Shown one piece after another: positions 25,911 to 39,692 of a DNA stretch of 39,692 nucleotides (its first letter is position 1; the number at the start of each line of letters is the position of its first letter). The notes beneath the pieces were generated by a model. It searched no databases. It had not been told where the DNA came from and saw nothing but the letters and a program-made list of their open reading frames with translations. The position numbers were made by a program, and so were the translations under genes. The stretch comes from an uncultured Chloroflexota bacterium (lineage in GTDB: Bacteria > Chloroflexota > Anaerolineae > Anaerolineales > Anaerolineaceae), in contig CADBKS010000011.1 of NCBI GenBank assembly GCA_902795255.1, positions 1-39,692 on the forward strand. The letters are read 5' to 3'.

Positions 25911-27446
<1,536 letters not shown>

Positions 27447-33024: not shown

Positions 33025-33033
33025 TGTTATAAT
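33025..33033 (+). promoter_or_regulatory. Extended -10 promoter of the cobalamin operon
   Basis: TGTTATAAT, a perfect -10 with TG extension, about 20 bases before the riboswitch. No good -35 is visible, which is tolerated in extended -10 promoters. Confidence 0.6.
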
Positions 33034-33052
33034 ATCTAAACATAAAATATTC

Positions 33053-33234
33053 GAGTGCTTCCGGTCCTGCAGAAAAGGGAGCGGAAGAGAATAGACAATC
33101 CGGTGAGAATCCGGAACGGTACCGCCACTGTAAGCGCGGAGACCCTGCACACAGACGAAAGTCTGCCATTGGAATTCAGTTCTGAGAAGGCTGTTCGGGG
33201 GCCGGCGATGCGCAAGTCAGGAGACCTGCTCGAA
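33053..33234 (+). promoter_or_regulatory. Cobalamin (adenosylcobalamin-type) riboswitch
   Basis: The leader contains the conserved pieces of the cobalamin aptamer in order: AATCCGGTGAGAATCCGG, then ACGGTACCGCCACTGTAAGC (with the GCCACTG core), and at the end AAGTCAGGAGACCTGC, the B12-box region. A terminator hairpin follows at 33294. Binding of the cobalamin cofactor should favour termination and switch the downstream operon off when B12 is plentiful. The start and end of the aptamer are approximate. Confidence 0.92.
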
Positions 33235-33293
33235 AACAGGCTTATCAGCTCTCGCGTAAGAGAAAATAGGCAGGCATTTCTGCATGAAAACGG

Positions 33294-33326
33294 ATGCGGC
33301 AGTTAATTAACTGCCGCATTTTTATT
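33294..33326 (+). terminator. Riboswitch-controlled terminator
   Basis: A perfect 26-base palindrome with arms ATGCGGCAGTTAA and TTAACTGCCGCAT (33294-33319), followed by TTTTATTT. It lies 113 bases before the first start codon and is the likely expression platform of the cobalamin riboswitch. Confidence 0.88.
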
Positions 33327-33438
33327 TGCCGAATGCTTTGGATTACCCGGTCGTTTCATTTTCCTTTGCCGCGTTCCGCTGACAGTCTGTCGGGATCGGT
33401 AAAATCCGGAGTGTTTCCGGAAATATTTTGGAGGATAA

Positions 33439-34575
33439 ATGAAAAAAATTGTTGTATTCGTAACGTTGTTCTGTCTGATTTTTGCGTCTGTTGCTGTTGT
33501 TTCCGCACAGACGGATCAGGAAGCTGCCGATCATGTCGCTGAACTGATCGATGCGATCTATGTCCAGGAACGCACGGATGAGACCGATGCGCTTTGCGCT
33601 GAAGCCAAAGCCGCTTGGGATGCGCTGACCGATGCGCAGAAAGAACTTGTCGAAGGCGAAAGCGCTGATCCGGATTATTTCGGCCGTGACACCGGGGATG
33701 CTTCCCTGGATGATCCCCGCAATCAGGATGAGATCGGTGAAAATGAACTGCTGGTCGTCAGTTTCGGTACTTCTTTCAACGAAAGCCGCACCGAGGATAT
33801 CAAAGGCATCGAAGACGCGCTCCAGGCTGCCTATCCGGAATGGTCTGTCCGCCGTGCTTTTACCGCCCAGATCATCATCAACCATGTTCAGGCCCGCGAC
33901 GGTGAATTCATCGATAATATGACCCAGGCGCTCGACCGTGCCGTGGCCAACGGCGTGAAACATCTCGTTGTTCAGCCGACACTGCTGATGCATGGTGCCG
34001 AATACGATGAAATGGCTGAAGCGCTTGAGGAATACAAGGACAGCTTCGAAAGCGTCGCTATTGCCGAACCGCTGCTCGGCCCCGTCGGTTCCGATGCCAC
34101 CGTTATCAACGAAGACAAACAGACTGTTGCCGAAGCAGTCACCGCTGCGGCCGTGAAAGCTTCCGGATATGATTCCCTTGAAGCGGCTGCCGAAGCCGGC
34201 ACTGCCTACGTTTTTATGGGACATGGTACTGCCCATGTCGCCAAAGTCAGCTACAGCCAGATGGCGACCCAGATGCAGAACCTCGGTTATGCGAACGTAT
34301 TTGTCGGTACGGTCGAAGGTGAACCGGAATCCACTTCCGCTGAAAACATCATCGAAGCCGTCAAGGAAGCCGGATACACGAAGGTTGTCCTTCGCCCGCT
34401 GATGGTCGTTGCCGGTGATCATGCCAACAATGATATGGCCGGAGACGAAGAGGATTCCTGGAAATCCATGTTCGCAGCAGCCGGATTTGATGTGGAATGC
34501 CACATCGCGGGTCTCGGCCGCATCGATACGATCCAGCAGATGTATGTCGCCCATACCGCCGCGGTGCTGGACTGA
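33439..34575 (+). CDS. cbiK: Exported sirohydrochlorin cobaltochelatase (CbiK-type)
   Basis: A 378-residue class II chelatase that inserts cobalt into sirohydrochlorin or a related tetrapyrrole. The CbiK domain begins near residue 103 (ELLVVSFGTSFNESR). The metal ligands fit His262 (FMGHGTAHVA), Glu293 (GTVEGEPES) and His328 (VAGDHANNDMAGD), spaced as in known CbiK enzymes. Unusually it has a signal peptide (MKKIVVFVTLFCLIFASVAVV, cleavage probably after VSA) and a spacer of about 75 acidic, helical residues containing DALTDAQKELV, a phrase typical of surface-protein linkers. So it should act outside the cytoplasmic membrane. GGAGG precedes ATG. It is first in the riboswitch operon. Confidence 0.9.
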   Translation: MKKIVVFVTLFCLIFASVAVVSAQTDQEAADHVAELIDAIYVQERTDETDALCAEAKAAWDALTDAQKELVEGESADPDYFGRDTGDASLDDPRNQDEIGENELLVVSFGTSFNESRTEDIKGIEDALQAAYPEWSVRRAFTAQIIINHVQARDGEFIDNMTQALDRAVANGVKHLVVQPTLLMHGAEYDEMAEALEEYKDSFESVAIAEPLLGPVGSDATVINEDKQTVAEAVTAAAVKASGYDSLEAAAEAGTAYVFMGHGTAHVAKVSYSQMATQMQNLGYANVFVGTVEGEPESTSAENIIEAVKEAGYTKVVLRPLMVVAGDHANNDMAGDEEDSWKSMFAAAGFDVECHIAGLGRIDTIQQMYVAHTAAVLD

Positions 34576-34593
34576 TCGATCATTGTTAAATTC

Positions 34594-34625
34594 AAACCTG
34601 CCCGGAATTGACTCCGGGCAGGTTT
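34594..34625 (+). terminator. Strong intercistronic hairpin after cbiK
   Basis: Perfect 12-base arms AAACCTGCCCGG and CCGGGCAGGTTT with an 8-base loop, ending only in TTT before GCTGACAGG, the Shine-Dalgarno of the next gene. It may act as a partial terminator or as an RNA-stabilising end that raises cbiK mRNA relative to the genes after it. Confidence 0.6.
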
Positions 34626-34644
34626 GCTGACAGGAGCGCTGATT

Positions 34645-35439
34645 ATGAAGAAGAACGGTATTTTTTGTTTGGCTGTGTTGATGTCTCTTGTGATCCTCCT
34701 GAGCGGAGTGATCAGTGCCGGTGCCGAATCGGATATTCTTCCCGACGGGCAGTATTCTGCGGTCTTTGAAACGGACAATAGGATGTTTTCGGTCAACGAA
34801 GCCTGTGAAGGCAGGGGCGTTCTGACGGTCCTTGACGGTGAAATGACGATCCATGTAAGCCTGGCATCAAAGAATATCCTGAATCTTTATCCCGGCCTTG
34901 CGGAAGATGCGCAGAAGGAAGGCGCGGAACTGCTTGAGCCGACGGAAGACGAAGTGACCTACAGCGACGGCTTTAAAGATACCGTATACGGGTTCGATAT
35001 TCCCGTGCCGCAGCTGGATGAGCCCTTCGATTGTGCGCTGGTCGGGAAAAAGGGCAAGTGGTATGATCACAAAGTCAGCGTCAGTGATCCGCTCCCGCTT
35101 CCGGCCGCGGAACTGCCTGCCGAAGGCGAATATCTTTGTGAAGTGGCACTGTTAGGCGGCAGCGGAAAAGCTTCCGTTGAAAGTCCCGCGTTTCTGACCG
35201 TCAGTGACGGAAAAGTGACTGCCCGGGTCATCTGGTCAAGTCCCTATTATGAATATATGCTCGTGGATGATGTCCGTTACGAACCGGTTCAGGAATCCGG
35301 GAATTCCACATTTGAGATCCCTGTGATCCTGGATGCCGATATGGCTGTCAGTGCTTCAACGGTCGCGATGAGTCAGCCGCATCTGATCGACTATACGCTT
35401 CATTTTGACAGCGCGACGCTTACCCCAGCCGGGAACTGA
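34645..35439 (+). CDS. Secreted protein with two tandem NEAT-like beta domains
   Basis: A 264-residue exported protein. A signal peptide (residues 1-27, cleavage near SAGA) is followed by two related beta domains (about 32-148 and 157-260). Both share the sequence plan G-x-Y, T-V-x-D-G-x-[MV]-T, a serine-aromatic segment (…WSSPYYEYMLVDD in the second), an [DE]IPV segment and a [KD]-x-[VT]-[HF] end. The second domain ends MSQPHLIDYTLHFDS, which resembles the YDYT strand of NEAT heme-binding domains. There is no membrane anchor or LPxTG. ATG 34645 is preferred because AGGAG is eight bases upstream. I infer binding of a tetrapyrrole or corrinoid; a true NEAT assignment would need a profile or structure search. 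Confidence 0.7.
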   Translation: MKKNGIFCLAVLMSLVILLSGVISAGAESDILPDGQYSAVFETDNRMFSVNEACEGRGVLTVLDGEMTIHVSLASKNILNLYPGLAEDAQKEGAELLEPTEDEVTYSDGFKDTVYGFDIPVPQLDEPFDCALVGKKGKWYDHKVSVSDPLPLPAAELPAEGEYLCEVALLGGSGKASVESPAFLTVSDGKVTARVIWSSPYYEYMLVDDVRYEPVQESGNSTFEIPVILDADMAVSASTVAMSQPHLIDYTLHFDSATLTPAGN

Positions 35440-35446
35440 CCGCACT

Positions 35447-36583
35447 GTGAAACATAAGATCAAATATCTTCTGAATGTTGTGATCCTGGCCCTTTTCCTG
35501 TGCTTTGGGGAAAGGGGCCGGGTTTTTGCTGTTTCGATCAGCGGACAGGATCCGGTCGGACATCTTGAGACGGAATTCGCGGAGCATTTTTCTGTCGAGT
35601 ATTATGAAAGCGGTGCCAAACTGCTCTCCATTTCGGATGGGCAGCGCTTTCTGGTCCTGCCGGAAGGCGCCGAAGAACCTCACGATATCGATGACGGCAC
35701 CGTGGTCCTGCATCAGCCGGTCCGGAATATTTACCTGGCGGCAACGGCCGTGATGTGCCTGTTTGACGCGTTGGACAGTCTCGACATGATCCGTCTGTCG
35801 GGAACGAAGGCAGACGGCTGGTATATTGAGAACGCACGGCTGGCCATGGAGGAAGGCAGGATCCTTTATGCGGGAAAATACAGTGAACCGGATTATGAGA
35901 TGCTGCTGGAAAACCGCTGTTCGCTCGCCGTGGAATCCCAGATGATCGGCCATGCTTCCATGGTCAAGGAAAAGCTCGAGGAACTGGGCATCCCGGTCCT
36001 GACCGATCTTTCCAGTTCCGAACCGCATCCGCTGGGCCGCACCGAATGGATCCGTTTTTACGGCGCGCTGCTTGACAAAGAGGAAACCGCGGATAAACTT
36101 TTTGCTGAACAGACGGAACTGATGCGCAGTGTTCAGAACCTTGGGGAGACCGGAAAGACTGCCGCATTTTTCCATATCAGTTCTTCAGGGTTTGTCGTCG
36201 TGCGGAAAAGCGGGGATTATGTCAGCAAAATGATCAGCCTTGCCGGCGGCACTTACGTTTTCAGCAATATCGGTGATCCGGAAAAATCGACCTCCACAGT
36301 CACGATCGATATGGAAACATTTTTCGCCGGAGCACGGGACGCAGATGTGCTGATCTATAACAGCACGATCGCGGGCGAGGTCAATTCGATCGCAGAACTG
36401 CTGGACAAAAACGGACTGCTTGCGGAATTCAAAGCCGTGAAAGAAGGAAATGTCTGGTGCACGGCTCAGAATATGTATCAGGATACAACACAGCTCGGCC
36501 AGATGATCCGCAGCTTCCACACGATCTTCTCGGGCGAAGCGGACGATCTGGACGAAGTCCCGTATTTTTTCCGGCTGAAATAG
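35447..36583 (+). CDS. BtuF/FecB-type periplasmic-binding-protein
   Basis: A 378-residue substrate-binding protein of the cobalamin/siderophore family (PF01497 type). It has two lobes and a long connecting helix, seen as …LDSLDMIRLSGTKADGW and …EKLEELGIPVLTDLSSSEPHPLGRTEW. It starts at GTG 35447, seven bases after the previous stop, with a weak Shine-Dalgarno. The N-terminus is a hydrophobic signal (KYLLNVVILALFLCFG) ending RGRVFA-VS. No proper lipobox is present: the Cys in LFLCF lacks a small residue before it. This is unusual for a binding protein of a monoderm, which is normally lipidated. It should deliver ligand to the FecCD permease encoded next. Confidence 0.88.
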   Translation: MKHKIKYLLNVVILALFLCFGERGRVFAVSISGQDPVGHLETEFAEHFSVEYYESGAKLLSISDGQRFLVLPEGAEEPHDIDDGTVVLHQPVRNIYLAATAVMCLFDALDSLDMIRLSGTKADGWYIENARLAMEEGRILYAGKYSEPDYEMLLENRCSLAVESQMIGHASMVKEKLEELGIPVLTDLSSSEPHPLGRTEWIRFYGALLDKEETADKLFAEQTELMRSVQNLGETGKTAAFFHISSSGFVVVRKSGDYVSKMISLAGGTYVFSNIGDPEKSTSTVTIDMETFFAGARDADVLIYNSTIAGEVNSIAELLDKNGLLAEFKAVKEGNVWCTAQNMYQDTTQLGQMIRSFHTIFSGEADDLDEVPYFFRLK

Positions 36584-36599
36584 ACAGGGGTGTGCGGGA

Positions 36600-37718
36600 A
36601 TGAAAACAGACCGAAATGAAAATACAGCAGAGATCCGGACCAGCAGCCGGATGCGTTTTGTTTTTGTCATATCATTCCTTGTCCTTCTGCTGGTCCTTGG
36701 CCTGCTGATCAATACCAATACCGGTTCGGTCCGGATCTCACCGGCGGAGGTCTTTCAAAAAATCTTCCAAAGCATCCGCTTTGGTATCGGGAACCTGCTG
36801 ACCGGCGGAAAATATGCAGCTGAGATGGATGAGATCGTCAACGGGGGGACGCAGGGCCAGATCTTGTTTCGAATCCGTCTGCCGCGCGTATTGCTGGCTG
36901 CGGTTCTGGGCGGAGCACTTTCGCTTTCCGGATATCTGCTCCAGGTCTTTTTCCGCAATCCTATTGCGGGACCTTTTGTGCTGGGGATCTCGTCCGGTGA
37001 AAAAATGGTGGTCGGGATCACGCTGATTTTTCTTACGAACAGGCTCGGGAGCGCAAGCTCCGGAGCACTGATCGCCGCATCATTTGCGGGCTCCCTGCTG
37101 ATCACCCTGTTTGTTCTTTTCTTCTCACAGAAAGTCCGGAATATGTCCATGCTTCTGGTGATCGGGATCATGGTCGGCTATATCTGTTCGGCAGTCACTG
37201 ATTTCTGTATTACATTCGCCAATGAGCATCATGTGATCAATCTGACCGGCTGGTCGATGGGGACTTTTTCCGGCGCGAACTGGGATCATCTGCGTACTTC
37301 TTTATGGATCTGTATTCCCGGGCTGATCGGTGCATTTTTGCTTTCCAAGCCCATCGGCGCGTATCTGCTGAGCGAGAATTATGCTGCTAGTATGGGAGTC
37401 CCGGTAAAAACGTTCCGGCTGCTTCTGCTGCTGGTCTCCAGCATGCTTTCTGCCTGTGTTACTGCGATCGCCGGTCCGATCTCCTTTGTCGGGATTGCCG
37501 TACCGCATATAACCAGGGTCCTGCTCCGGTCCGCAAAACCCCTGTATATGATCCCCGCGGTATTTTTATGCGGAGCTGTATTCTGTATTTTCTGTGATCT
37601 GATCGCCAGAACACTGTTTGCTCCGGTCGAACTGATGATCGGTACCGTTACATCCTTTTTCGGGGCACCGGTCGTGATCTGGCTGATGATCAAAAACCGA
37701 ACGAAAGGTAAGGAGTAA
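36600..37718 (+). CDS. FecCD-family ABC permease (BtuC-like)
   Basis: A 372-residue membrane protein of the iron-siderophore/vitamin B12 import type. The family phrases LFRIRLPRVLLAAVLGGALSLSG, FRNPIAGPFVLGISSG, GWSMGTFSGANW, GPISFVGIAVPHITR and the final GTVTSFFGAPVVIWLM are in the usual order, with about ten helices. There is a cytoplasmic N-terminus of about 20 residues. Between the first and second helices lies a longer segment than normal (residues about 45-90). It forms the channel for the binding protein upstream and is driven by the ATPase downstream, from which it is separated by four bases. Confidence 0.92.
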   Translation: MKTDRNENTAEIRTSSRMRFVFVISFLVLLLVLGLLINTNTGSVRISPAEVFQKIFQSIRFGIGNLLTGGKYAAEMDEIVNGGTQGQILFRIRLPRVLLAAVLGGALSLSGYLLQVFFRNPIAGPFVLGISSGEKMVVGITLIFLTNRLGSASSGALIAASFAGSLLITLFVLFFSQKVRNMSMLLVIGIMVGYICSAVTDFCITFANEHHVINLTGWSMGTFSGANWDHLRTSLWICIPGLIGAFLLSKPIGAYLLSENYAASMGVPVKTFRLLLLLVSSMLSACVTAIAGPISFVGIAVPHITRVLLRSAKPLYMIPAVFLCGAVFCIFCDLIARTLFAPVELMIGTVTSFFGAPVVIWLMIKNRTKGKE

Positions 37719-37722
37719 GCTC

Positions 37723-38844
37723 ATGCCGTTTTTCAGTGTTCAGCAGCTTACGATCGGATATAACGGGCATCCGCTCATCAGCGATATCAGTTTCGGTCTC
37801 GAAAGAGGGGAGATCCTAACCCTGATCGGACCCAACGGGGCCGGCAAATCGACACTGCTCAAAACAGTCACCCGGCAGCTTCCCGCTATTTCAGGACATA
37901 TTTTTATCGGGGAGAAAGATATGATGTCCCTGAGCGGGAAAAACCTGGCAAAGATCATGGCTGTCGTTTTGACCGAAAGGATCCGTCCGGAACTGATGAC
38001 CTGCGCGGAGGTCGTCGCGATGGGGCGGTACCCGTATACCGATATGTTCGGCAGGCTGTCGGAGCAGGACAGGACCGCTGTGCGGGATGCTTTGGACCGT
38101 GTCCATGCGCTGGATCTGGCGGATCAGGATTTTTCCACGCTTTCGGACGGACAGCGTCAGCGTATCCTGCTGGCCCGGGCGATCTGTCAGGAGCCGGAAG
38201 TGCTGATCCTGGATGAACCGACGGCTTATCTGGATATCCGGTATAAAATCGAATTGCTGGAGATCCTTCGTGACCTTGCCCGGTCAAAGGGAACCGTGAT
38301 CATCATGTCCCTGCATGAAGTTGACCTCGCGATGAAGATCTCCGATTCGCTGATCTGTCTTGACGGAAGCGGAATTGCTGCAGAAGGCGCTCCGGAGGAG
38401 ATCATGACCCCGAGCCTGATCGAAAATCTCTATGATATCCGTGAAGGAACGTATGATCTGTTATTCGGAAGTGTGGAACTTCCGAAACCGCAGGGCGAAC
38501 CTCGGGTATTTGTGCTTTCCGGCTGCGGTCTGGGTACACCATGCTACCGCCTGCTGCAGAAAAAAGGGATCCCGTTTGCCGCGGGGATCCTGTTTGAAAA
38601 TGACACGGACTGCCGGACAGCGGATGCTCTTGGCGCCCGTGTGTTCAAAACTGCTCCTTTCCGGGCGGTTCCGGATTCACTGATCGAAGAGGCTGCAGAA
38701 GTGATGCGGCACTGCGAATTTGTACTGGATCCGGGAAAAGCCGCCGGCAGCCTGCACACTGAAAACCGCAGACTTCTGGAAATTGCCCGGGAAGAAGGTC
38801 TTCCTGTCCGAACGGATCTGCCGACAGGAGAACGAGCATCATGA
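37723..38844 (+). CDS. FecE/BtuD-type ABC ATPase with additional C-terminal domain
   Basis: A 373-residue protein. The ATPase domain (1-255) has Walker A GPNGAGKST (36-44), the FecE-like signature LSDGQRQR (140-147), Walker B LILDEP (161-166) and H-loop His198. Residues about 259-370 form an extra domain, beginning RVFVLSGCGLGTPCYRLLQ and containing FENDTDCRTADALGA and LHTENRRLLEIAREEGL. It is Rossmann-like in appearance, with three cysteines (268, 274, 297) in the first half. Ordinary FecE/BtuD proteins stop at about 260. The stop overlaps the cbiA start (ATGA). Confidence 0.9.
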   Translation: MPFFSVQQLTIGYNGHPLISDISFGLERGEILTLIGPNGAGKSTLLKTVTRQLPAISGHIFIGEKDMMSLSGKNLAKIMAVVLTERIRPELMTCAEVVAMGRYPYTDMFGRLSEQDRTAVRDALDRVHALDLADQDFSTLSDGQRQRILLARAICQEPEVLILDEPTAYLDIRYKIELLEILRDLARSKGTVIIMSLHEVDLAMKISDSLICLDGSGIAAEGAPEEIMTPSLIENLYDIREGTYDLLFGSVELPKPQGEPRVFVLSGCGLGTPCYRLLQKKGIPFAAGILFENDTDCRTADALGARVFKTAPFRAVPDSLIEEAAEVMRHCEFVLDPGKAAGSLHTENRRLLEIAREEGLPVRTDLPTGERAS

Positions 38845-39692
38845 ATTTCAGCATACCGAGAGTCATGATCGCCGGGACCGGCAGCGGATGCGGAAAAACC
38901 TCCGTGACCTGCGCGGTACTGGGAGCGTTGAGAAAGCGCGGATCAGATCTGAGCGCTTTTAAATGCGGTCCGGATTATATCGACCCCATGTTCCACAGCC
39001 GTATTCTGGGAACTGAAAGCGCAAATCTCGATTCATTCTTTTTCCCGGATAACACCCTGAAATATCTGCTTGCCGGAAGGGGCAGGGGAAAAGATCTCAG
39101 CGTTATTGAGGGCGTTATGGGATTTTACGACGGGATCGGAATGGAGAGCGGAAAAGCGTCCTCCTGTGAGATCGCCCGAATCACCGAAACGCCTGTCATC
39201 CTTGTCATTGATGCGAAAGGTGCTGCCCGTTCTGTTCTTGCAGCCCTGCAGGGTTTTCTGACCTTTGAAGCCGATCCCCCGATCCGGGGCGTTATCCTGA
39301 ACCGCTGTACGGAAATGACGTACCGGATGCTTGCGGATGCTGTCCGACGCCATTTTGGAGGAAAGATCCTGCCGCTCGGATACATGCCGGTCATGCCGGA
39401 ATGCAGCCTTGAAAGCCGTCATCTCGGTCTGGTCACTGCTCAGGAAGTCAGTGATTTACGGGAAAAAGCGGACCGTCTTGCTGCACAGGCTGAAAAATCG
39501 ATCGATCTTGAAGGGATCCTGCAGTTGGGACGCGAAGCCGGCGAACTGCTGTGTGAACCTGTCGGCTTTCCGAAACTTACTGAAAAAGTCCGCATCGCTT
39601 ATGCATCTGACAAGGCTTTCTGCTTTTATTATGCGGACAATCTGAGCGCGCTGCAGGAGATGGGGGCGGAACTTGTTCCTTTCAGTCCGCTG
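38841..39692 (+). CDS. cbiA: Cobyrinic acid a,c-diamide synthase CbiA (3' partial)
   Basis: 284 residues are present and the frame is open at the window end. The P-loop GTGSGCGKTS is at residues 12-21, the family motif FKCGPDYIDPMFHS at 40-53, and EGVMGFYDG at 90-98. The glutamine-amidotransferase part begins near residue 255 (KVRIAYASDKAFCFYY). CbiA amidates the a and c side chains of cobyrinate, an anaerobic-pathway step inside the cell. It overlaps the ATPase gene by four bases, so the transport genes and biosynthesis are in one transcript under the same riboswitch. Confidence 0.95.
   Translation, partial: MNFSIPRVMIAGTGSGCGKTSVTCAVLGALRKRGSDLSAFKCGPDYIDPMFHSRILGTESANLDSFFFPDNTLKYLLAGRGRGKDLSVIEGVMGFYDGIGMESGKASSCEIARITETPVILVIDAKGAARSVLAALQGFLTFEADPPIRGVILNRCTEMTYRMLADAVRRHFGGKILPLGYMPVMPECSLESRHLGLVTAQEVSDLREKADRLAAQAEKSIDLEGILQLGREAGELLCEPVGFPKLTEKVRIAYASDKAFCFYYADNLSALQEMGAELVPFSPL

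What the first reader, a model, noticed from the sequence alone, without database searches (positions are those of the whole stretch)
33025..39692. B12-riboswitch operon joining an exported cobaltochelatase, a NEAT-like secreted protein, an ABC importer and CbiA
Seen: a cobalamin riboswitch, then genes for CbiK with signal peptide, a secreted double-domain protein, binding protein, FecCD permease, ATPase and CbiA with overlaps or tiny gaps. Known: CbiK normally works in the cytoplasm (a periplasmic CbiK exists in Desulfovibrio), and NEAT domains pass heme along cell walls. Inference: the first three products may take up, metallate and hand over a tetrapyrrole or cobalt-corrinoid precursor outside the membrane, followed by import and amidation by CbiA. 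This would be a scavenging entry into cobalamin synthesis instead of only cobalamin uptake.
Basis: partly seen in the sequence, partly recalled or inferred. Interest (0 to 1): 0.75.

Follow-up and report, generated by a model that had tools for sequence, protein, structure and literature searches.

The report
Outside-cell entry to B12 synthesis
A vitamin-B12-controlled operon, common in gut bacteria, seems to let cells that cannot make the starting ring of vitamin B12 pick one up outside the cell, probably fit it with cobalt there and import it, which would explain a known but unexplained nutritional dependency.

Summary
In detail: a cobalamin riboswitch, an exported CbiK, a secreted two-domain NEAT-fold protein, a BtuCD-type importer (SBP, FecCD permease, ATPase) and CbiA, cut by the window end. 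It is widespread: 60 of 80 fetched loci keep the order CbiK-NEAT-SBP-FecCD-ATPase, and 26 of 27 loci tested carry the riboswitch. Of 30 carrier genomes, 28 have the corrin-ring marker CbiC, but 18 lack HemB, HemC and CobA together; in 16 of those 18 the exported CbiK is the only CbiK/CbiX found. In an order sample of 297 genomes, among CbiC carriers with a classified CbiK, exported-only CbiK occurs in 20 of 29 HemC-minus against 4 of 47 HemC-plus genomes. CbiK is fused to NEAT in 33 of 111 exported sequences, the importer ATPase to CbiD in 6 genomes, and all 111 keep the active-site motifs. Best reading: extracellular capture and cobalt loading of a sirohydrochlorin-type ring, then import into the anaerobic corrin pathway. 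About half of the exported-only genomes also lack CbiL, so their substrate may be factor III. Ligands are untested; phylogenetic contrasts are underpowered. The closest relative, P. gingivalis Iht/FetB, is read as heme uptake.

The parts
33041..33247 (+). cobalamin riboswitch aptamer (RF00174)
   Evidence: 91 bits, E 2e-21, model 1-189
33294..33319 (+). perfect palindrome followed by TTTT: terminator-like expression platform of the riboswitch
   Evidence: read from the sequence
33439..34575 (+). exported CbiK (378 aa): signal peptide, N-terminal extension, CbiK domain 104-376; active-site residues E188, H262, H328
34594..34625 (+). inverted repeat in the 69-bp gap between CbiK and the NEAT-fold gene, no T run
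   Evidence: read from the sequence
34645..35439 (+). secreted two-domain NEAT-fold protein (264 aa); domain 1 about 34-151, domain 2 about 156-260
35450..36583 (+). exported solute-binding protein, Peripla_BP_2 (start GTG is my choice; the listed ORF begins at TTG 35405)
36600..37718 (+). FecCD/BtuC-type permease
37723..38844 (+). ABC ATPase of the FecE/BtuD type with C-terminal extension
38841..39692 (+). [quoted passage not shown]
   Evidence: NF002204 299 bits over cut-off 254

Best explanation
The operon is the entry module of anaerobic vitamin B12 synthesis in cells that do not make the tetrapyrrole ring. When cobalamin is scarce the riboswitch lets it be transcribed. The secreted NEAT-fold domains, often fused to CbiK, catch a sirohydrochlorin-type tetrapyrrole (factor II, in some species perhaps factor III) released by neighbours. 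The exported CbiK, with an intact active site, puts cobalt into it outside the membrane. The SBP-FecCD-ATPase importer brings the cobalt complex into the cytosol, where CbiL/CbiH/CbiF/CbiG/CbiD and the later enzymes take over. Shown: gene content, order, fusions, riboswitch, export signals, conserved active-site motifs, joint absence of HemB/HemC/CobA and of another CbiK. Inferred: ligand identity, cobalt insertion outside the cell, direction of transport, regulation in vivo.
For: Order CbiK-NEAT-SBP-FecCD-ATPase in 60 of 80 loci; CbiK-NEAT in 78 of 80; 32 of 54 full-order loci with 7 kb or more downstream carry B12-synthesis genes on the same strand. Riboswitch in 26 of 27 exported-CbiK loci given to Rfam, against 1 of 9 loci of HemC-minus genomes with cytosolic CbiK. 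Carriers: CbiC 28/30, CobS 29/30, CbiA 29/30, but HemB, HemC and CobA in the same 12 of 30; CbiX matches coincide with CbiK places. HemB-minus exported only 16, HemB-minus with a second CbiK 2, HemB-plus exported only 2, HemB-plus with second CbiK 10; Fisher p 1.2e-4. Among 84 CbiC+ genomes of 297 in the order of Faecalibacterium genome G029: HemC+ 43 with cytosolic CbiK against 4 exported only; HemC- 9 against 20; p 5e-8. CbiK fused in frame to NEAT in 33 of 111 exported sequences; ATPase fused to CbiD in 6 genomes. Active-site motifs in 111 of 111. In 2 of 9 HemC-minus genomes with cytosolic CbiK the order is SBP-FecCD-ATPase-CbiK-CbiD-CbiL-CbiF: importer first, then chelatase. The complete genome G029 lacks HemB, HemC and CobA yet holds the cbi/cob cluster.
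Against: No ligand or activity was tested. Independent contrasts on a CbiC tree: 7 supported pairs, on average 3.7 in the expected direction and 0.4 against, median p 0.25. If exported CbiK is counted whether or not a cytosolic one is there, the link with HemC is weaker: 20 of 35 HemC-minus against 11 of 49 HemC-plus, p 0.0015. Nine HemC-minus CbiC+ genomes have only a cytosolic CbiK and five have none. Four HemC-plus order genomes and two HemB-plus carriers have only an exported CbiK, which the model does not explain. Ten of 30 carriers have HemB and a second CbiK, so there the operon is not the only entry. 11 of 20 exported-only HemC-minus genomes also lack CbiL, which a pure Co-sirohydrochlorin model does not predict. 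CobN, HemA and HemD were not searched across genomes, and CbiX and CobA not in the order sample. The window's own genome is not held. The best PDB match of the CbiK is P. gingivalis FetB, annotated as heme-binding.
Confidence: 0.62

Rival explanations
1. It is an ordinary corrinoid (cobalamin/cobinamide) importer; the exported CbiK and NEAT-fold protein are only surface corrinoid-binding proteins that feed BtuCDF, as the BtuG/BtuH surface proteins (recalled) do in Bacteroidetes.
For: B12 riboswitch; permease and ATPase nearest to BtuC and a corrinoid ABC ATPase in NCBIfam, although under the cut-offs; 10 of 30 carriers have a HemB and a second CbiK.
Against: Does not explain why carriers without HemB/HemC/CobA keep the ring-contraction genes, why the ATPase is fused to CbiD, why all 111 exported CbiKs keep the chelatase motifs, or why the importer heads cbi operons.
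Confidence: 0.22
2. It is a heme or porphyrin uptake and metal-exchange system like the P. gingivalis Iht/FetB system; CbiK removes or swaps iron and the importer brings in iron or porphyrin.
For: Best PDB match of the CbiK is FetB; NEAT fold of the partner; IhtB is thought to remove iron from heme (passages of PMC10913741) and FetB to make Mn-protoporphyrin (passages of PMC13402209).
Against: Control by a cobalamin riboswitch and cbi/cob genes in the same gene run; link with HemB/HemC/CobA loss in genomes that keep corrin genes. The conserved domain-2 motif is HxxxY instead of the heme NEAT YxxxY (motif recalled).
Confidence: 0.1
3. It is a cobalt acquisition system: CbiK and NEAT bind cobalt ions or a cobalt chelate outside and the ABC importer moves cobalt.
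For: CbiK of Salmonella binds Co(II) (passages of PMC7689651).
Against: Does not explain the missing ring precursors or the NEAT fold; FecCD importers move large chelates (recalled); cells without any cytosolic CbiK/CbiX still need a cobalt-loaded ring.
Confidence: 0.06

Closest known systems
Porphyromonas gingivalis Iht (IhtABCDE) system with IhtB/FetB
   Same: exported CbiK-type protein with a binding protein, permease and ATPase; FetB (9b86) is the best PDB match of the window CbiK, E 2.3e-38; P. gingivalis also lacks the steps to precorrin-2 (passage of PMC6461909)
   Different: Iht has a TonB receptor and is read as heme/iron or Mn-porphyrin handling (passages); here there is a NEAT-fold partner, a B12 riboswitch and cbi genes. 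That IhtB and FetB are the same protein is recalled
Desulfovibrio B12-element operon cbiK-cbiL with btuCDF, and periplasmic CbiKP (2xvx)
   Same: a B12 element controls CbiK and a BtuCDF transporter together (passages of PMC545781); 2xvx (identified as D. vulgaris CbiKP from recall) matched at 4.2e-31
   Different: no NEAT-fold partner named; D. vulgaris has two CbiKs (title of Lobo 2008 seen in a reference list; the cellular places recalled); no link to precursor import in the passages seen
Isd/NEAT heme relay of Gram-positive bacteria
   Different: HxxxY instead of YxxxY (recalled), B12 control, often fused to a chelatase
Tetrapyrrole precursor salvagers (Shelton et al.)
   Same: genomes with corrin genes but without precursor genes; 180 species, primarily Firmicutes (passages and section 13 of PMC6461909); precorrin-2 salvagers at 0.6% as cited in PMC8123684
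   Different: that work names the phenotype; no uptake machinery was named in the passages I read

Membership tests
CbiK cobaltochelatase (PF06180) | Pfam domain over cut-off | tested here: met
   242.7 bits against cut-off 26.2
CbiK cobaltochelatase (PF06180) | active-site His145, Glu89, His207 of Salmonella CbiK (both His in a passage of PMC7689651; Glu recalled) | tested here: met
   aligned to H262, E188, H328; motif patterns around them found in 111 of 111 exported CbiKs, the Glu pattern being a loose one
NCBIfam NF047852 sirohydrochlorin cobaltochelatase CbiK (equivalog) | score over curated cut-off | tested here: not met
   194.2 bits against 400
CbiK cobaltochelatase (PF06180) | inserts cobalt into sirohydrochlorin | not testable with these tools
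   needs protein
NEAT domain (PF05031) | Pfam match of the window protein | tested here: not met
   no hit for the window protein; 31 of 50 scanned members of its alignment hit at E 0.01 or better
NEAT domain (PF05031) | NEAT fold | tested here: met
NEAT domain (PF05031) | heme-ligating YxxxY motif (recalled) | tested here: not met
   domain 2 has HLIDY (H246, Y250), domain 1 has WYDHKV
BtuCDF corrinoid importer | Peripla_BP_2, FecCD and ABC ATPase genes together | tested here: met
BtuCDF corrinoid importer | BtuC / corrinoid ATPase equivalog cut-offs | tested here: not met
   199 against 334 and 229 against 537 bits
BtuCDF corrinoid importer | transports corrinoids | not testable with these tools
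   no transport assay
P. gingivalis Iht system | TonB-dependent receptor gene in the operon | tested here: not met
   none of the six + strand genes from the riboswitch to the window end is such a receptor; the window ends inside CbiA
Cobalamin riboswitch RF00174 | covariance model over gathering score | tested here: met
   91 against 31.5 bits

The most novel reading that the evidence does not exclude
Gut bacteria of more than one phylum have moved the first committed step of B12 synthesis, cobalt insertion, to the outside of the membrane and replaced the whole hemABCD/cobA branch by a surface chelatase, a NEAT-fold hemophore-like protein and an importer. They harvest factor II or siroheme (with Fe-to-Co exchange), or factor III in species that have also lost CbiL, from neighbours. 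Vitamin B12 in the gut would then be a community-assembled cofactor passed on as unfinished rings, and P. gingivalis FetB/Iht may be a further member that was read as heme uptake.
Probability: 0.35. Interest if true: 0.92.

Novelty: new variant of a known kind. Interest (0 to 1): 0.78.

Why it matters
Precorrin-2-level B12 auxotrophs have been inferred from genomes, and how they get their ring is open as far as I saw (Shelton et al. say that little work had explored such salvagers, passage of PMC6461909). This operon is a concrete, testable candidate in gut genera such as Faecalibacterium, Gemmiger and Butyrivibrio (record titles). If right, B12-producer predictions for the gut need a new class, B12 exchange includes early metal-free or metal-loaded rings, and exported CbiK proteins filed as heme proteins need a second look.

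Tried and rejected
Own genome of the window: none held, so the hem/cob test was done in carriers. A regular expression for the riboswitch core found 21 of 79 usable of the 80 fetched loci, 11 of 30 exported loci of the order sample, and 3 of 53 loci of the group listed as cytosolic; it was too strict, and Rfam replaced it: 26 of 27 (14 of the 80 loci and 13 of the 14 long-span CbiK loci of the order sample, picked to fit the size limit; miss L125). CbiX as a hidden second chelatase: PF01903 matches in the 30 carriers all coincide with CbiK places. Sequence search of the PDB with the NEAT-fold protein or its profile, and with the SBP, gave nothing usable. A motif count of CbiK-NEAT fusions gave 3 because the pattern was wrong; in-frame BLAST gave 33. 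I rejected incomplete assembly as the cause of missing hem genes: HemB, HemC and CobA are absent in the same 18 of 30 genomes, among them a complete chromosome (G029) and a single-contig assembly (G018). Independent contrasts on the CbiC tree were underpowered. Rows left out of that tree: G292 (frame broken) and G218 (no CbiK). Left out of the Fisher table: genomes without or with fragmentary CbiK (G166, G178, G045, G057, G073, G081, G218); G068 (CbiK cut by a contig end) is out of the main table and does not change the result when put in. G001 and G029 are in both genome samples. The 30 carriers were picked by me out of 80 loci, mostly for long contigs; the order sample of 297 was drawn by the tool. 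Leaders were judged by rule of thumb: 73 of the window and 80 loci pass; of the other eight, six leaders read as signal peptides, and L024 and L053 were not seen in full. G301 has no ATG leader start, so its 'exported' label is unsure; L116 was first framed wrongly and is cytosolic. The 111 exported sequences hold two genes twice (L001/L132, L071/L121). Paper searches for a published description listed none in this open-licence library; subscription journals are missing. Families not listed by the fold search are not excluded by it.
Full report

How common it is. A scan of one genome per species kept the best 80 loci of at least 575, mostly Lachnospiraceae and other Clostridia (Faecalibacterium, Gemmiger, Butyrivibrio, Blautia, Roseburia) with two spirochaetes (L043, L059). 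78 of 80 have CbiK followed by NEAT, 60 of 80 the full order CbiK-NEAT-SBP-FecCD-ATPase, and 56 of the 67 with at least 4.6 kb downstream. Rfam finds the riboswitch in 14 of 14 and 12 of 13 exported-CbiK loci, and in 1 of 9 loci of HemC-minus genomes with a cytosolic CbiK. In 33 of 111 exported CbiK sequences (two genes counted twice in the 111) a NEAT domain is in the same frame as CbiK, in four of them both NEAT domains. The named relatives of two window proteins are mixed but include Anaerolineaceae and Flexilinea, so the window may come from a gut Chloroflexota; this is a guess.

Genome test. For 30 carriers chosen from the 80 loci: CbiC 28, CobS 29, CbiA 29 of 30. HemB, HemC and CobA (over its cut-off) are each found in 12 of 30, and these are the same 12. 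CbiK: 18 genomes have one copy, 12 have two; CbiX matches coincide with CbiK. Cross table: HemB+ with second CbiK 10, HemB+ exported only 2 (G017, G030), HemB- with second CbiK 2 (G018 with a weak second match, G023 without CbiC), HemB- exported only 16; Fisher p 1.2e-4. Of the 16, 15 have CbiC, CbiA and CobS; G021 lacks CbiC and CbiA.

Less biased test. 297 genomes drawn by the tool from the order of the Faecalibacterium genome G029, searched for CbiK (85 with a match), CbiC (84) and HemC (60). CbiK leaders were read from fetched DNA by rule of thumb. Among the 84 CbiC+ genomes: HemC+ 49, of which 43 have a cytosolic CbiK (7 of these also an exported one), 4 only an exported one, 2 none or a fragment; HemC- 35, of which 20 only an exported CbiK, 9 only a cytosolic one, 5 none, and 1 (G068) a CbiK cut by a contig end in an exported-type operon. 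Fisher p 5e-8 without the none/fragment rows and without G068; counting any exported CbiK, with or without a cytosolic one, it is 11 of 49 against 20 of 35, p 0.0015. On a CbiC tree of 102 genomes (both samples) both traits change at least 16 times; supported independent pairs are only 7, in which the traits go together 3.7 times and against 0.4 times on average, median p 0.25: right direction, too few pairs. The two spirochaete carriers (G019, G024) are HemB-, HemC- and CobA- and exported-only too.

Links to the corrin pathway. Of 54 full-order loci with 7 kb or more downstream, 32 go on with B12-synthesis genes on the same strand, such as CbiA-CbiC-CbiD-CbiF-CbiG-CbiH or CbiP-CobT-CobU-CobS-CbiB. 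In the complete genome G029 the operon runs into CbiD, CbiF, CbiG, CbiH, CbiJ, CbiET, CbiA, CobT, CobU, CobS, CbiB, CobD, CbiP and CbiC, and the importer ATPase and CbiD are one 637-aa reading frame; the same fusion is seen in all 7 adjacent ATPase-CbiD pairs that I checked, that is 6 genomes. Of the nine HemC-minus genomes with only a cytosolic CbiK, two loci (L088, L095) show SBP-FecCD-ATPase-CbiK-CbiD-CbiL-CbiF, a third (L089) an importer on both sides of CbiK without cbi genes in the stretch held. Both layouts put an importer and a CbiK at the head of a corrin operon in genomes whose precursor genes are missing; the side of the membrane on which CbiK sits would then decide whether the ring is loaded before or after import (inference).

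Where the pathway begins. If HemB, HemC and CobA are missing, the first ring that can be used is at the level of precorrin-2/sirohydrochlorin. Without a cytosolic CbiK/CbiX the cobalt has to be in place before CbiL. That fits exported CbiK as the maker of the imported compound. However, CbiL has no full-length match in 6 of the 15 HemB-minus exported-only carriers with CbiC (7 over the cut-off, 2 full-length but under it) and in 11 of 20 such genomes of the order sample, against 1 of 9 HemC-minus genomes with cytosolic CbiK, 0 of 12 HemB-plus carriers, and 2 of the 21 HemC-plus order genomes given to that call out of 49 (one of them in pieces at contig ends). For these species either factor III is the imported ring or another methyltransferase does the job of CbiL. 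This is the main loose end.

Chelatase. The window CbiK aligns to FetB (9b86, E 2.3e-38), Salmonella CbiK (1qgo, 2e-37; organism recalled) and 2xvx (4e-31; Desulfovibrio CbiKP by recall), with the active-site positions kept at E188, H262 and H328; the motif patterns are present in all 111 exported CbiKs. An enzyme kept intact in so many genomes is more likely a working chelatase than a mere binding protein (inference).

Literature. In the passages I read, IhtB of P. gingivalis is thought to take iron out of heme (PMC10913741) and FetB to make Mn-protoporphyrin (PMC13402209); the FetB paper itself is not held. PMC545781 reports one B12 element controlling cbiK-cbiL and btuCDF in Desulfovibrio (passages). 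PMC6461909 defines tetrapyrrole precursor salvagers and says that little work had explored them (passages and section 13); PMC8123684 cites a precorrin-2 salvager class of 0.6% (passages). PMC6593275 scores B12 producers by CbiK/CbiX and corrin genes (passages), without precursor genes in the row that I saw. None of the listings I made describes this operon.

Verdict. The operon is real and widespread and best read as a precursor-scavenging entry into B12 synthesis; extracellular cobalt insertion is the most likely mechanism but unproven. It works like, and may share ancestry with, the Iht/FetB system, but it differs in control, partner and pathway, so I file it as a new variant of a known kind.

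Noticed in passing
L192:1264-3177 + (G029); also L007, L011, L082, L122, L124: ABC importer ATPase and CbiD in one reading frame (637 aa in G029): a transporter subunit fused to a corrin-ring methyltransferase.
   Followed up: yes
G029, G169, G069, G135, G223, G264, G083, G183, G196, G267, G272 and others: CbiL is missing although CbiC (and, in G029, CbiH, CbiF, CbiG, CbiD and CbiJ) is present, mainly in genomes with exported-only CbiK.
   Followed up: partly
L089 (G232): Cytosolic CbiK between two SBP-FecCD-ATPase sets, followed by a 1226-aa CobN-like protein (PF02514); this genome lacks HemC and CbiL.
   Followed up: partly
L036:7434-7865 +: A second cobalamin riboswitch closely followed by a Clostridiales-1 RNA (RF01699).
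   Followed up: no
window:34594-34625 +: Inverted repeat without T run between cbiK and the NEAT-fold gene; might set unequal expression of the two.
   Followed up: no
window:29346-31289 -: Flavin oxidoreductase of the BaiCD/bilirubin-reductase kind (470.7 bits to BaiCD, under the cut-off of 825).
   Followed up: no
window:15038-17080 + and 25911-27443 -: GH120-like beta-helix protein and an alpha-L-arabinofuranosidase C-terminal domain protein: plant cell wall degradation genes.
   Followed up: no
window:32790-32980: G+C-rich stretch upstream of the riboswitch that looks repetitive by eye (GGAACCG and GGTGTC words); not analysed.
   Followed up: no
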